The notes below the pieces were generated by a model. The model saw nothing but the letters and a program-made list of their open reading frames with translations. It did no database searches and was not told where the DNA came from. A stretch of DNA of 64,000 nucleotides from Dactylonectria macrodidyma (Eukaryota > Ascomycota > Sordariomycetes > Hypocreales > Nectriaceae): NCBI GenBank assembly GCA_020744425.1, contig JAGMUV010000012.1, forward strand, positions 62,001 to 126,000, written 5' to 3'. Positions 32,277-60,667 of this stretch are shown here, piece by piece. The translations under genes and the position numbers were made by a program. How positions within the stretch are numbered: the stretch's first letter is position 1; every line of letters starts with the position of its first letter.

Positions 32277-32284
32277 ATTCCCAC
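32277..32284. repeat. Target-site duplication, left copy (ATTCCCAC)
   Basis: Eight bases immediately left of the TTACCTCAGC terminus, identical to 37252-37259 on the other side of the element. Confidence 0.9.
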
Positions 32285-32428
32285 TTACCTCAGCAAGCTC
32301 AGGCCCGTGCGTCCGACGCCAAGGCGCGCTAGTCCTAATCGGTAGCACGTACGCAAAGGGCCTGAGCCAAATTTGCACTTTTTTGGTGCGGTTGTCGTTC
32401 GTGGCTCCGAAATTGCGCGACGCGATTT
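32285..32428 (+). repeat. Left terminal inverted repeat (144 bp)
   Basis: Perfect inverse of 37108-37251. Contains GCTCAGGCC, CCTAATCGGTA and GGGCCTGAG words, also found in the non-autonomous element at 60 kb. It ends about 70 bp before the DUF6589 start codon, so it also carries that promoter. Confidence 0.93.
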
Positions 32429-32500
32429 TCGGTTTGTCGGTCGCAAACCAACCCCCGTCTTTCTTGTGCCATCACCACCACATCCTACATTATTCTGAAT

Positions 32501-35016
32501 ATGACGCCCGAAAGCGGGAGGCCTTCGGGTACATCCGGTAGCCCATCTGCCTCTCTGCCCATACCACCCGTCGATGACAGACGTCGACGATCACCCCGCT
32601 CAGACGGTGAGAAGCTCGATATGGTATGCAGTTACATGCGGAAAGAGCTCGGCTGGGGTGTTTCCGACTTCATCAAGGCACTAGCTTCCGCCGGAGGCCC
32701 TAATAATGCTCGCCGAAAGGCTGCCTTTGCGGCAGCTGCATACAAGGAACCAGACGTCCTGAATTGCTTCTTTAACGATGCAAATCAGCTCTGGGATGGC
32801 GTCAGGGAGTCCGTAATCGAGACACTGGATCTAGGCAACAATGAGCTACGAAAGGAGGTTGAAAGACTGGGTTCTTTGACACCATTTAACAAGTGTGATC
32901 CGACTGTCAATAGTGGAGAATTCGACGCGCTGGATATGGACCAAACCCTACGTGCAATACAGAAGGAGGCACCTCTGTTGCTCCAGCTTGTAAGGGACAT
33001 CATGGCGCCTGAATCTCAACGGACATATCAGCGCCAAAAGGAACCTACCGCTCGAATTGTCGCCATCATATCAATCCTCTGTTTCTCACAGCGTCAAAAC
33101 ACCTGCACGGGCTTTCAGACAACTCTAGGCCTCTACCTGCACTCTCAAGGTGTGAAACGTCGGCAGCTAGAGCTCCTCAGTCACCTTGGACTTGTCGTCA
33201 GTTACGGCACTGTCATCCGGGCCATCAAAGAACAATCAGCTCGGGCTACGGCACAAGTGGAAAGAATGGGGCAGACTGACGACACCGTGACGGCGTACGA
33301 TAATTTCGAGGTCATGGAAGGCGTCAAAGAGCAGCGGGTCGATCACCAAGGTACTTTCCATTCGGTGACGACTGGCCAGGTGATTCAAGGCATTGAAATA
33401 CCACCTGGTGGACTGCGGCAAGATATGCTTGATCCACAGGCGACAATATGTGCCAATGATGTCTTCCTAGCCCCAGGAAATCAGGACGACGCTATGCAGC
33501 GTCAGGTGCGTAATTGCTTAATCATGCCCTTGGCCTCGTACTCACTGGCAACCGGCTGCAGTAGATAGCACGATACTTTGCCTACGAGGCCATGAACACA
33601 ATCTTCTCGAACGCCATCCCGGACGCTGCAAAGAAGCAGCGCCCATCAATGCCCGTTGTCGATGTTCTCGCGCCTGCTAAGACTGTCCATTGCTCCCTCG
33701 GTCCTATTCCTCATGACGAGGGCACCAATGCTGGCAATGTTCTGATTCTGGAGAACATCTTTCAGCATCAATATAATCTACCCGACTCAGCCTTTGAGCA
33801 TCGTTTATTCCTTATCTACGGTGACCAGAAGACTACGCAGCGGATTCGTTCGATCAAACAGCGCAGGGAACAAGCTCAGCGACCTTATGACAGACTGCAA
33901 TGGGCACTACCAGTGCCTGCACTCTTCCACCTCCGTATGAACTATCTCTACATGGTATCCAGAGTCCATTTCGGCGGTGCAGGCGGCGATCAATCCACAT
34001 TATATGATGCCATGAATTTCTGGACTAGGAAAAAGATTAGCAAATCCAACGCTGACTTCTACGCCTTAGAGCAGCTGATCATCCATAGCTTCCAGGCTAG
34101 AGTATGTGCCTTGCTCTGGAACATACTTACTCAGTCTAGACAGGGGGTAGGCCTCGAGTTCGAAGGCATCGCTCAAACTCTCGCTATTCACGATGCCGAG
34201 GCCTTCTCACGACTGCTCGATAGGATTGTCGATTCCTACGGCAAATATGCCCCTTCGACAGACGACGAGGAGCTTCGGAACCACGTCCTGTTTTTGCAGC
34301 ACACGCAGACCTACCTGCTCCTGAAGTACTCAATCAAGCATGCAGATCTCGGTCTCTTGCGACGAGCCATTGATCGCTGTTGTGTGTATTTCCATGGCTC
34401 AGGACAGTACAGATACGCGTTTGAGATGCTATACCTTCAGCGCCTCACCTCAACGAGCGCTGCCACCCCGGAATTGCAGCGCGCGATACTTGCAAACGGG
34501 CTTGTCAATCGTCAGGGCAAGGCGGATAGTTGGTACGAGACAGACAGGCTCGTGGAATTCCACAATGGCACTCTCCGGAAGCTGCTCAACGCCAAACGTG
34601 GATCTTCCCTTACGTTGGATTACCTTTTCGAGCACTGTGCTTTAAATACCGACTTCTTTGCCTCTCTTGCGAAGCAGATCGAGTATTTCTACAGCAGTAA
34701 TCACAATAGCGGTCATCCGGAAAAGCCAGCGGAACGTGACATCAGGGTTATGGCTGAACGTTTAGCACGCAGTGGTTCAGTCATCTTGCATAGTGGGCGA
34801 ACGGTCAAGAACAAGGCTATTAACGTGTTGGAAGTAGGAGCAATGCGAATTGCCGGCAGAGCAATAGCTGACTTCAACAAAGCGGTATGCAGCGTCGACT
34901 ACGAATACTTGGAAGCATTTGAAGGCGAACAGGATGATGAAGGCGAAGACGGAGATGGAGACATCGGTAAGGAAGTCGGCCAGTTCTTTACATCCGGCAA
35001 TGTCGACGATGATTAG
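32501..35016 (+). CDS. DUF6589 protein, candidate transposase
   Basis: Exon 1 (32501-33505) and exon 2 (33565-35016) join by a 59 nt intron (GTGCGT...GCAGTAG) in phase 0, giving 818 residues. I recognise the DUF6589 core by HRLFLIYGDQKTTQRI, RPYDRLQWALPVPALFHLRM and the downstream helical region. DUF6589 proteins are abundant in fungi and have no proven function. Three conserved-looking acidic positions sit in typical RNase H-fold contexts: Asp267 in TAYDNFE, Asp422 in YGDQKT and Glu666 in RLVEFHNGTLRKLL. The last is an ExxN-type motif like the third acidic residue of hAT and MULE transposases, and the 244-residue gap before it resembles the hAT insertion domain. The C-terminus is acidic. Position inside perfect TIRs supports a transposase role. 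The triad is my inference. Confidence 0.85.
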
Positions 35017-35038
35017 AAGGAGACGATGTTCTATCCGC

Positions 35039-36987
35039 CTAAAATTTGTATTTTGCAAGCGCTGCCTGTAAGCACGCGTTTTGTATCACTTCAAGAACCT
35101 CCTTCCCGTACAAAGCCATATTACCCCATTCTCCGTTGACTGCATGTGCTAATGAACTGAGAGAGTTAACCGTTGCGGCCGTTCGTGATATCATGGCTGC
35201 GGCCTTGTCTGGAAGGATCAGTTCGGCCGGTGCTTCTATGAAAACCGCCGGACACAGTACCGCCGCCTTTGCCTCTCGCCACTCGATCAATGCCAATTTC
35301 ACTGCTTCGATGATGTGCTTTTGGGATTGCAACGTCCTGACAGGCCGCCCTGCCTTGCTGATACGCATTCTGACTTCGTCGCCATCGCATTTGCTACAGC
35401 AAGCCTCTGTGTCTGCCGTACGGGTATATGATGTGGGCCCCTCGCCGAAGGACTCGAGAATGCCTCTCCGGATGCATCTTGAACGATTGACAAGCTCCCA
35501 TATGCCTCGTGGTAAGACGGATCGTCTCTCACGCTCCGTCATGCGCTTATTGGTAGATCGAGGTGGTAAGTGCTCTATTCTATCCCCAAAACACCATGGC
35601 TGAACTAACCAGACGAATTTGCCGTAGACTCCCTTACCACGTGCAGCTCGGCCAGCTCGCTGCAACAAAGCACCCATACTCGGCGGCACTCCCCACTGAA
35701 CGACCAGTCGGATGTCTGGATTGTCAATACCCATCCCCATTGCATCAGTGGCAACGATGATACGATGCATTGAGCTATCCAGGACGCTCTCGGTGTCAGG
35801 CTTTGCGAATTCTGTGGATATACGCCTTTTATCAGATTCTGCAAGCTCCGAGTGATAAGCTTGGACAGCATCGATGGCGGACATCATTGAACAGCCTGCC
35901 CGAATCAACAGGAGTGTCAGCACTCTGACTGCCATTAGGATCTGCCTTATCGAGTCGACATATACAATGGTCTTTGGAATCCTCTTGCAGCAGTTGCGGC
36001 TGTCAGATCCTGCTTCCTTTCGGTGATATCTAGTGTTTGTTAACACTGTCTGAGCAGCAACTTTGCCGCCACGTTTGAAAGCTTCTCTTGCCATATTCTC
36101 CCTTCTCTCCGTCACGACCTGCTCAACTGCCGCCTGCACAGGATCGACAAGGAATTCGAGATCCCGAAAATTTTTCATTGGATGTTGAATTGGTTGAATT
36201 GCAAATGTTATGTCAGGTCTGTCGATGGAGGTGCGTTGAATGCGAACGGAAAGGTCGAATCCACAGAGATCTCGAACTTCAGCAAGCGTAACAGGATCCA
36301 GTGTTGCAGAACAACCCAGCCAAGGTACAGGTCTGCTAATTAGGTCGCGCAGCAATGCCAATCCGCTGTATGAACTCCTCCAACGGAGACCCCACTCGCT
36401 GACCACGTGTAATTCGTCGATGGCCACCAATACGAGGTGGTCTCGAAAGGCCTGGTCATACAAAACCTTCGTCTTGAACCTCTCTGATAATGCAATTTCG
36501 GGACTCAGGAGCACTGATTCGTTAGTTCAACCTTGATATGCTGCTGGCAACCGTCGAACAGAGACCCTACCGTGTGTGAATTCGCCTGCTCGGATCTCAT
36601 CGAGTAACGTGTCCCTGTTCGACTGGCCGTTCAATACGCAAGGCTTGCAGCGGGCTATTCGAGCAATGGACTTGGCCTGGTAATTGAGATCCGGCCTTTC
36701 AGTGTTTCCGCGATAATCCTCTCTGCCTCGGCGCAACTGACCTGGTCCTCTTCGAGAAGATTCAGTGGCATAATCATGAGGCAAATACCGCCTCGCAAAG
36801 CCGGAATCGCCTGGAATACGGCGCTCTTGCCCCATCCGGTGGGTGCAATTAGGATTAGGTCCTGCTGGTCGACAGCAAGACTCCGTACGGCTTCTATCTG
36901 GCCGTCTCGCGGCTGGAATCCGAGCAGGGTCGCCAATGTGGAGGGCAGGGAATCGGCATCAGGGCAGCGCAATGGCGCATGTGGCAT
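35039..36987 (-). CDS. RecQ-family ATP-dependent DNA helicase
   Basis: Exons 36987-36742, 36676-36571 and 36513-35039 join in phase to give 608 residues. Helicase motifs run in order: Q-like motif GFQPRDGQ (about 23-30), Walker A APTGWGKS (Lys54), Walker B IDELH (150-153), LGCSATL (motif III), TIVYVDS (motif IV), IIVATDAMGMGIDNPDIRLV (motif V) and LLQRAGRAARG (motif VI). A short Cys pair (CCSKCDGDE) follows, a reduced version of the RecQ zinc region; HRDC is not seen. RecQ enzymes unwind DNA 3' to 5'. Being carried inside a transposon suggests it helps strand separation or repair during transposition, an inference from location. The stop lies 22 bp from that of the DUF6589 gene, in convergent orientation. 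Confidence 0.9.
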
Positions 36988-37107
36988 GGCTATCGATAGC
37001 TACAATACATATGTAGTTCCAAGCATAGTCTCAAGAAATTCAAGACGATATTGAAGGTGCAACGCGCAAATGAATTGGTGAAGTTGTTGTTGTAGAGCTA
37101 CGACCGC

Positions 37108-37251
37108 AAATCGCGTCGCGCAATTTCGGAGCCACGAACGACAACCGCACCAAAAAAGTGCAAATTTGGCTCAGGCCCTTTGCGTACGTGCTACCGATTA
37201 GGACTAGCGCGCCTTGGCGTCGGACGCACGGGCCTGAGCTTGCTGAGGTAA
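37108..37251 (-). repeat. Right terminal inverted repeat (144 bp)
   Basis: Perfect inverse of 32285-32428. It lies 120 bp upstream of the helicase start at 36987, so each TIR faces the 5' end of one internal gene. Confidence 0.93.
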
Positions 37252-37259
37252 ATTCCCAC
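37252..37259. repeat. Target-site duplication, right copy (ATTCCCAC)
   Basis: Eight bases immediately right of the GCTGAGGTAA terminus, identical to 32277-32284. Confidence 0.9.
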
Positions 37260-37316
37260 GTCACATGGAGTCGACCCAAAATTTTCAACTCGTCATTGCT
37301 TGATTAGATCTACAGA

Positions 37317-38492
37317 ATGCCGCCTAAACGCAAAGCCCTCGAACCTGCCAACTCCCCTGTTAGCAGGTCAAACAACGCGAAGAAGGCTAAGTCTGGCGAT
37401 GAACCACGTAACGACAACGACGAGCAGTTTGAGGCTGTCTTCAAAAATAGGAGTACGCGCTGGGCCAAAGTCTCAGGCTCGAAGAATTTGGACATCGAAT
37501 ATATGAAAACGACTAGGAACCTTGAGGAGGTTTATGCATTTGTGTGCATTTGTAACCCTATCCGAGACGTGGACGAGGAAGAGGATGACGACAACGCGGA
37601 TGCTGAAAACAAGGTACGGTGCGACAAGGGCAGGACGTGCCCATGCAATAAGCAATTCTCCGAGCTTCCATCTCATCCATACACAATTTCCAAGGCGGGA
37701 CTTGCGCGTAACCATTGCGCCGCAAATATGATGAACTTGCGCACGCCCGACTTTTTTGATATATATACATTTAACGATCACGCGGCCTATGGGGCGCTTG
37801 AAGTGGTGCAGAACCTGCTACTAGACTTTGACGAGGCATTTAAGAACAAGAAGTGGCAAGAGGCTTGGTCAGTCGTCGAGGCCACGGCTATTTTCGTGAG
37901 GGTGGGCGACGGTAGCCTCATGTTTATGGCCGACGACGGACAGATAATAAGCGAGACCGCGTCTCAGATTGCTAGAATGGTGCTCGCAGCGCTGGCGGCT
38001 CTAGAGAGCGATGGGATACTCAGTGGCAACTCGCACAGCAACAACGTTGGCTGGATGATCGCAATGTACATTGCCATGGCCTCCATGTTCCGGGATTTAT
38101 CTCTAATCCAGGGGAACCGCCAATTAAAAGCTAAGCTGTTCAAATTCTGGGCTGGCAACTTTGATCTCTACCTTCAGGCGATCGCGCACCGACTCAACAT
38201 CACAATTCCAGACACTGAGAATGTCTCTAAGAACATCGAACATACGATGCCAAAGGGAAACAGAAAGGACCCGTGGGGTTGGGTGAGGTCTTTTGCACAG
38301 TATAAACGAACTTCTGTGGTACCTAGATACGCATTCCGAGGGGAACATAGGAGGACGATTGGAGGTGATGGATTGGACATTACCACCTGGAGCAGCGCGG
38401 AGAGGAAGCAATACAACTTCGACGACAAAGACCCGCTTTCTCAAAAGACCATTGAGAGCCTTAAAGAAGGGCTTGTCTTGGTCCTAGGCTAG
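37317..38492 (+). CDS. Conserved-looking hypothetical protein with acidic/Cys segment
   Basis: A single-exon gene of 391 residues. The N-terminus is basic (PKRKALEPA). A CxC pair (CICN), an acidic linker and a CDKGRTCPC cluster follow near residues 77-110; then comes a mostly helical domain (HAAYGALEVVQNLLLDF ... NNVGWMIAMYIAMASM). I have no family name. The ATG is only 58 bp from the target duplication of the adjacent transposon, so the insertion sits in its promoter or 5' leader and probably changes expression. The reading frame itself is intact. A metal-binding role for the Cys cluster is possible but unproven. Confidence 0.65.
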   Translation: MPPKRKALEPANSPVSRSNNAKKAKSGDEPRNDNDEQFEAVFKNRSTRWAKVSGSKNLDIEYMKTTRNLEEVYAFVCICNPIRDVDEEEDDDNADAENKVRCDKGRTCPCNKQFSELPSHPYTISKAGLARNHCAANMMNLRTPDFFDIYTFNDHAAYGALEVVQNLLLDFDEAFKNKKWQEAWSVVEATAIFVRVGDGSLMFMADDGQIISETASQIARMVLAALAALESDGILSGNSHSNNVGWMIAMYIAMASMFRDLSLIQGNRQLKAKLFKFWAGNFDLYLQAIAHRLNITIPDTENVSKNIEHTMPKGNRKDPWGWVRSFAQYKRTSVVPRYAFRGEHRRTIGGDGLDITTWSSAERKQYNFDDKDPLSQKTIESLKEGLVLVLG

Positions 38493-60069: not shown

Positions 60070-60667
60070 TTACCTCAGGCACTCAGACCATTTGCTCGTG
60101 CCAAGGCAACGGACGGGACTATACCTAATCGGTAAAGGTCACCTGACGTCCTCGAGTAAATGGCCTGAGGATCCTGTCAAATATTTTGGGCCTGAGTCAA
60201 GATGCGCACAACGCGAGCACAACAAGATCATAGGTAATTAAATGCTAACTGACGAAAGCGTTGTACAATGTTCAATAGCACTTCACTGATTTTCGACGTG
60301 TTTTCTCTTCGCTTCGTTAGCTATTCGTCGGAAGAGTGGCTCGGGCGACGATTATGCCCAAGTCTTAGTCCGCCACCTATTAGCGTTTTCCACAAGACAC
60401 AGAAACATGGGCGTTCTAAAAATTGATTTTTAGATAGAACATGTCATTACGCACAGCCCAGTGAAATTGGGGACAAATATCATGTGCTTTGATGTGACTA
60501 TTGATCGATATGGAAAAAAGTGATACTCCAGAGTCGCGAAAATTATCGGGTAGTCAGTGGCGCGCATTGACACGGCACTCAGGCCATTTGGTGGAGGACC
60601 GTACCGATTAGGTATAGTCCCGTCCGTTGCCTTGGCACGAGCAAATGGTCTGAGCTCGCTGAGGTAA
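60070..60667 (+). mobile_element. Non-autonomous TIR element (MITE-like), about 600 bp
   Basis: It starts TTACCTCAGG and ends GCTGAGGTAA, the same termini as the 5 kb element at 32-37 kb, with about 65 bp inverted repeats whose inner parts (CAGACCATTTGCTCGTGCC ... ACTATACCTAATCGG) are identical at both ends. GGCCTGAG and GGGCCTGAG words near 60160 and 60190 are shared with the larger element, as is CCTAATCGGTA. No coding capacity. The flanks (TGGGTAGC left, AAAAAGGG right) do not form a direct duplication, consistent with rearrangement. It is probably mobilised by a relative of the DUF6589 element. Confidence 0.8.

What the first reader, a model, noticed from the sequence alone, without database searches (positions are those of the whole stretch)
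32277..37259. Young TIR transposon pairing a DUF6589 protein with a RecQ-like helicase
Seen: 144 bp identical terminal inverted repeats, a perfect 8 bp duplication (ATTCCCAC) and two intact convergent genes between them. Neither a known transposase nor another candidate enzyme is present. Known: RecQ helicases are core repair enzymes; helicases in TIR transposons are unusual outside Helitrons. Inferred: DUF6589 is the transposase and the helicase assists excision or gap repair, which would define a distinct superfamily or a hAT/KDZ offshoot.
Basis: partly seen in the sequence, partly recalled or inferred. Interest (0 to 1): 0.92.

Follow-up and report, generated by a model that had tools for sequence, protein, structure and literature searches.

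The report
Jumping gene carrying its own helicase
A recently active fungal jumping gene pairs a protein of formerly unknown function, which folds like known DNA-moving enzymes, with its own DNA-unwinding enzyme; other helicase-carrying transposons are known, so it is probably a new branch of a known kind.

Summary
At 32285-37251 lies a 4,967-bp element with 149-bp inverted ends (first mismatch at base 145), an 8-bp duplication ATTCCCAC, and two open convergent genes: DUF6589 (818 aa) and a RecQ-type helicase (608 aa). Two paralogous unfilled sites in the same genome carry a single target copy. The genome (probably Dactylonectria macrodidyma) holds three divergent clades of such elements: 14 of 14 full-length DUF6589 hits have the helicase beside them, and 13 of 22 DUF6589 hits lie between TTACCTCAG ends. 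Sister units 100%, 99.98% and 99.55% identical sit in different flanks. Of 37 inspected end pairs, 26 have exact 8- or 9-bp duplications (8 of 11 full units, 18 of 26 shorter or other pairs). A DUF6589 model matches Hermes, P-element, Tn5 and RAG structures, with a near-invariant D-D-E. DUF6589 is therefore very probably a DDE transposase; the helicase's task is inferred. AcademH (9-10-bp duplications) is closest, but no Academ sequence was available to compare. Best label: new variant of a known kind, possibly AcademH itself.

The parts
32277..32284 (.). left copy of the 8-bp target duplication ATTCCCAC
   Evidence: unfilled paralogues carry one ATTCCCAT
32285..32433 (+). left terminal inverted repeat, 149 bp, starts TTACCTCAGCAAGCTCAGG
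32298..32305 (+). outer end box CTCAGGCC (putative transposase site)
32359..32366 (-). inner end box, inverted (GGCCTGAG)
32501..33505 (+). DUF6589 gene exon 1 (335 codons; carries the first catalytic Asp, residue 267)
33506..33564 (+). intron of the DUF6589 gene, phase 0 (inferred)
33565..35016 (+). DUF6589 gene exon 2 with stop (second Asp 422, Glu 666); PF20231
35039..36513 (-). helicase gene exon 3 with stop (Helicase_C match; later helicase motifs)
36514..36570 (-). helicase intron 2 (inferred)
36571..36676 (-). helicase gene exon 2
36677..36741 (-). helicase intron 1 (inferred)
36742..36987 (-). helicase gene exon 1 (start codon; nucleotide-binding motif APTGWGKS, motif named from recall)
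37103..37251 (-). right terminal inverted repeat, 149 bp
37170..37177 (+). inner end box, right end (CTCAGGCC)
37231..37238 (-). outer end box, right end (GGCCTGAG)
37252..37259 (.). right copy of the 8-bp target duplication ATTCCCAC

Best explanation
A young autonomous cut-and-paste DNA transposon. DUF6589 is its transposase: an RNase H-fold DDE enzyme with a large helical insert (window residues D267, D422, E666) that recognises bipartite ends (CTCAGRCC about 13 bp in, inverted GGYCTGAG about 66-99 bp in), cuts the element out and joins it to a target with an 8-9-bp stagger. The convergent second gene is a RecQ-type helicase that travels and diverges with the transposase. Most likely it works on the DNA left by the transposase (unwinding or strand exchange at the excision gap or the strand-transfer complex, as host BLM does in P-element gap repair, recalled), helping repair and copy gain. 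Shown by sequence: anatomy, duplications, empty sites, recent movement of the whole unit, mobilised short derivatives, co-divergence, purifying selection. Supported by a model: the DDE fold. Inferred only: the chemistry, the meaning of the end boxes, and the helicase's task.
Confidence: 0.82

Rival explanations
1. The element is a member of the described AcademH lineage, and DUF6589 is simply the Academ transposase under a Pfam name.
For: AcademH encodes a helicase and makes 9 or 10-bp duplications, against 3 or 4 in nuclease-bearing AcademX (passage of PMC10045372); it is described as low-copy in Basidiomycota, Ascomycota and Mucoromycota (passage of PMC10799480). Here too: fungus, transposase plus helicase, 9-bp duplications in 9 of the 26 pairs with a duplication.
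Against: 17 of 26 duplications are 8 bp and none is 10 bp; reading the 8-bp ones as 9 bp with a one-base-shorter end would need an A before the 8-mer, seen in 5 of 17, as chance gives. The AcademH paper is not held and no Academ sequence was at hand, so homology is untested.
Confidence: 0.5
2. DUF6589 elements are an offshoot of hAT or P transposons that picked up a helicase.
Confidence: 0.15
3. The element is a passenger moved in trans by a MULE (Mutator-like) transposase; DUF6589 is cargo.
For: Long TIRs and 8-9-bp duplications suit MULEs (recalled); the genome has at least 150 MULE domain hits; two TTACCTCAG pairs, L069 and L070, hold MULE sequence.
Against: The L070 MULE is nested, with its own 94-bp TIRs and a 95% copy at C76:445077. 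Of 150 scored MULE hits only these two lie inside the 45 convergent pairs built from 118 listed sites; the two share flanks and lack a target duplication. DUF6589 has a DDE fold of its own.
Confidence: 0.04
4. The helicase does not act in transposition but shields the element from the host, for example as a decoy against RecQ-dependent silencing (QDE-3 in Neurospora quelling; name recalled).
For: A RecQ helicase is tied to gene silencing in Neurospora (passage and reference title in PMC4522978); stop-rich remnants on C56 and C77 suggest host attack on repeats.
Against: No direct evidence. PMC10045372 remarks that duplication length in Academ seems related to the accessory enzyme, which speaks for a role in integration.
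Confidence: 0.2

Closest known systems
AcademH (Academ superfamily; Kojima 2020, Mob DNA 11:15; paper not held, known here from passages in PMC10045372 and PMC10799480)
   Same: Fungal DNA transposon with a DDE-type transposase plus a helicase; duplications of about 9 bp.
   Different: Duplications here are 8 or 9 bp, not 9 or 10; sequence relation of DUF6589 to Academ untested.
KolobokH (Kolobok superfamily; passages in PMC9587614)
   Same: Fungal, carries a RecQ helicase; a rhodophyte Kolobok has the helicase on the complementary strand, as here.
   Different: Kolobok makes TTAA duplications and shares C/DxxH; both not met here.
hAT (Hermes) and P element
   Different: No conserved C/DxxH motif, no sequence match among those shown, a helicase partner, 149-bp bipartite ends.
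Kyakuja/Dileera/Zisupton (KDZ)
   Same: Fungal; duplications of 8 bp in several members (passages in PMC12730594 and PMC12810828; others 4-8 or 7 bp).
   Different: No KDZ model among the Pfam families shown; no KDZ-borne helicase in the passages read.
RecQ family helicases (E. coli RecQ, BLM, WRN)
   Different: Below the curated cut-off of TIGR00614; the C-terminal helical part was barely tested.

Membership tests
TIR cut-and-paste DNA transposon | terminal inverted repeats and target duplication | tested here: met
   149-bp TIRs, ATTCCCAC twice; 26 of 37 inspected pairs of the family have exactly 8 or 9 bp, 11 do not
TIR cut-and-paste DNA transposon | unfilled sites with one target copy | tested here: met
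   two paralogues for the window; three of the other seven copies tested against held loci
DDE/RNase H-fold transposase | fold and D-D-E triad | tested here: met
   model of P0004, pLDDT 80.7; the 28 best VIA rows are all DDE transposases or RAG, though Foldseek alone has none at E <= 0.001; D277 52/52, D429 55/56, E672 54/54
DDE/RNase H-fold transposase | strand cleavage and transfer activity | not testable with these tools
   needs biochemistry
RecQ helicase | RecQ core by sequence and fold | tested here: met
RecQ helicase | score above the curated TIGR00614 cut-off | tested here: not met
   146.1 bits against 219.8; hence 'RecQ-type', not filed as a family member in NCBI's sense
RecQ helicase | RQC winged helix or HRDC domain | tested here: inconclusive
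   model residues after about 504 barely tested
AcademH | 9 or 10-bp duplications | tested here: not met
   17 of 26 are 8 bp, 9 of 26 are 9 bp, none 10 bp; feature from PMC10045372
AcademH | transposase homologous to Academ | not testable with these tools
   no Academ sequence or profile at hand; paper not held
AcademH | encodes a helicase | tested here: met
KolobokH | TTAA duplications | tested here: not met
   none of the 26 duplications; feature from PMC9587614
hAT, P, MuDR, Kolobok, Dada | C/DxxH between second D and last E | tested here: not met
   3 occurrences in 50 rows, each at a different place; feature from PMC9587614
hAT or P | sequence similarity to a family model | tested here: inconclusive
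   not among the 25 of 43 families shown for 93 relatives
KDZ | PF18758 similarity | tested here: inconclusive
   not among the 25 of 43 shown; no genome hit, but the control was silent too
MuDR (MULE) | PF10551 in the encoded protein | tested here: not met
   not in the window's exon ORFs at E <= 1 nor among the families shown for 93 relatives
Helitron | no TIR and no target duplication | tested here: not met
   TIRs and duplication present; feature recalled

The most novel reading that the evidence does not exclude
DUF6589 defines its own superfamily of DDE transposons, spread through Ascomycota and soil fungi, in which a RecQ-type helicase is an obligate partner. The element would bring its own gap-repair helicase, so that cut-and-paste excision is regularly healed from the sister copy and the element gains copies.
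Probability: 0.3. Interest if true: 0.75.

Novelty: new variant of a known kind. Interest (0 to 1): 0.55.

Why it matters
It gives a probable function (DDE transposase) to a Pfam family of unknown function; one full-text search for the word DUF6589 found it in none of the 5.39 million papers held, which leaves out most subscription journals and Repbase. It also supplies complete, nearly identical copies in three clades for asking whether a transposon that carries its own RecQ-type helicase steers its own excision repair. Helicase-bearing transposons are also a proposed source of host fusion genes in fungi (PMC10799480, passages).

Tried and rejected
MULE rival: L069 and L070 looked at first like recognised transposases inside the same TIRs. 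At L070 the MULE is nested, with its own 94-bp TIRs and a 95% copy elsewhere. At L069 no own ends were found, so that MULE remnant stays unexplained.

A frame break that I suspected in the helicase near 36680-36740 reads best as an intron, judged from homologues.

Contig-length sharing between DUF6589 and helicase proteins: one search gave 10 shared lengths (9 on short contigs) against a shifted mean of 1.1 and maximum of 5. I dropped P0009/P0150 (contig too short for both genes) and P0015/P0126 (whole chromosome), leaving 8 of 26 DUF6589 hits on 4.4-12-kb contigs. Contig identity is inferred from equal length only.

Co-divergence: with 19 pairs, gave Spearman 0.44 (10 of 2,000 permutations as high). 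After dropping 4 pairs (3 N-terminal fragments that do not overlap exon 2, and P0009), one search gave 0.94 with 15 pairs.
Full report
OBSERVATION. The element spans 32285-37251 (4,967 bp) with ATTCCCAC on both sides. The TIR arms are 149 nt and 99% complementary; the ends are identical for 144 bp. Gene models: DUF6589, 818 aa, one phase-0 intron of 59 bp; helicase, 608 aa, two introns. The genes converge with 22 bp between their stops. Pfam, on exon ORFs: DUF6589 E 9.2e-71; Helicase_C and DEAD for the partner. Introns are inferred, without RNA.

WHERE IT IS. The window is C4:62001-126000 of a 77.28-Mb assembly in 77 contigs. Two homologues named Dactylonectria macrodidyma lie on public contigs of 1,046,827 and 718,612 bases, the exact lengths of C19 and C25 here, so this is most likely that species (inference). 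A search listing (PMC4400431, title and start of abstract) calls it a plant pathogen of grapevine, avocado and olive.

FAMILY IN THE GENOME. PF20231 has 22 hits and the helicase 35, many weak. Fourteen DUF6589 hits match 355 or more of 410 profile positions; all 14 have the helicase convergent and within 2 kb, in three groups with helicase identity to the window of 69-77%, 46-48% and 37-41%. Thirteen of 22 DUF6589 hits lie between convergent TTACCTCAG ends (12 in the listed pairs, plus C32:260862-266900), three have one end, six have none found (not all surroundings were held). The motif TTACCTCAGN{3,4}CTCAG occurs 87+95 times against 3+1 in the control (100 of 182 sites listed); the N3 form occurs 28+32 times against 0. 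From 118 listed sites I built 45 convergent pairs; of 12 pairs longer than 4.5 kb, 11 hold DUF6589. The exception, C8:944290-954914, has the flanks of the 1.2-kb pair L076 and so looks like that element with a nested insert.

DUPLICATIONS. I inspected both flanks of 37 TIR pairs, chosen from the listed sites, not all sites. Seventeen have exact 8-bp and nine exact 9-bp duplications; eleven have neither (C15:388472 has 6 bp). For the 11 full units the count is 8 of 11; for the 26 others 18 of 26. L072, L084 and L085 share flanks, so the 8-bp cases stand for 15 independent events. In 5 of the 17 8-bp cases the base before the 8-mer is A, so that a 9-bp reading with an end one base shorter is possible there; 5 of 17 is what chance gives.

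EMPTY SITES. The window's flanks joined without the element and one duplication copy match C22:611607-611904 and C4:141306-141604 across the junction at 89% and 88%. Both carry a single ATTCCCAT. Eight joined flanks were tested against held loci only; three elements besides the window showed unfilled sites: C4:691466 (in L043 and L023), C25:172659 (in L043 and L048) and C32:260862 (inside a short derivative of the same family, unfilled in L071, 98.5%). In the divergent paralogues the single target copy differs from the duplicated one by up to two bases.

RECENT MOVEMENT. C8:442581-447894 and C15:388472-393785 are 100% identical over 5,314 bp in different flanks; the C20 and C32 copies are 99.55% identical over 6,039 bp; C25:172659 and C25:327051 are 99.98% identical over 5,297 bp with duplications TGAATAGTC and GGTGAAAAG. 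Whole units with both genes therefore moved recently. The C25:172659 copy already has a stop in the helicase.

SHORT DERIVATIVES. Elements of 394 to about 2,200 bp share the ends and often the duplications; L087 and L089 are internal deletions of the second clade. Ends alone thus seem enough for movement in trans.

END ARCHITECTURE. In eight full units CTCAGRCC lies 12-13 bases in and its inverse 66-99 bases in; seven of eight have both boxes at both ends, one only the outer pair: 30 boxes in 4,000 end bases, 1 in 39,466 interior bases. I read these as transposase sites (inference).

MECHANISM. Shown: the unit moves and duplicates 8-9 bp. Model-based: DUF6589 is the DDE enzyme. Inferred: the helicase aids processing or repair. 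Leads: host BLM helicase is needed in repair of P-element gaps (recalled, no call); PMC10045372 remarks that duplication length in Academ seems related to the accessory enzyme, helicase 9-10 bp and nuclease 3-4 bp (passage).

AGAINST KNOWN KINDS. PMC9587614 (passages) describes KolobokH with a RecQ helicase in fungi; Kolobok makes TTAA duplications and shares C/DxxH, and both features fail here. AcademH (passages in two citing papers; primary paper not held) shares the helicase, fungal hosts and about 9-bp duplications; the 8-bp majority does not fit as stated, and sequence homology could not be tested. I therefore do not file the element as AcademH but give that outcome even odds. hAT and P share the fold but not C/DxxH. 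The MULE rival is answered at L070 (nested) but leaves L069 open.

VERDICT. Real, young, well anchored; DUF6589 gains a probable function. Novel in detail, probably not in kind.

Noticed in passing
window 60070-60667: A second, non-autonomous pair of family ends (598 bp, 66-bp TIR at 95%): left end of the GCACTCAG type, right end of the CGAGCTCAG type, no target duplication.
   Followed up: partly
L069 (C4:1212731-1215747): Degraded MULE sequence between TTACCTCAG ends without own TIRs found; same flanks (inverted) as L070, whose MULE is a different, nested insertion.
   Followed up: partly
window 37308-38492: The element ends about 65 bp before the first ATG of a 394-aa ORF without Pfam match; the region around that start exists in two more copies (C22:611607, C4:141306).
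   Followed up: partly
P0034 (Metarhizium anisopliae protein): A protein model that joins a Piwi domain to DUF6589; it may be a transposon inserted beside an Argonaute gene or a gene-model fusion.
   Followed up: no
G000 C56:14310-27013 and C77:121366-127454: DUF6589 and helicase remnants full of TAA and TAG stops, as repeat-induced point mutation would leave.
   Followed up: no
G000 C25:27690-27697: A full element and a 426-bp derivative stand side by side, each flanked by GATCAAGT, sharing the middle copy.
   Followed up: no
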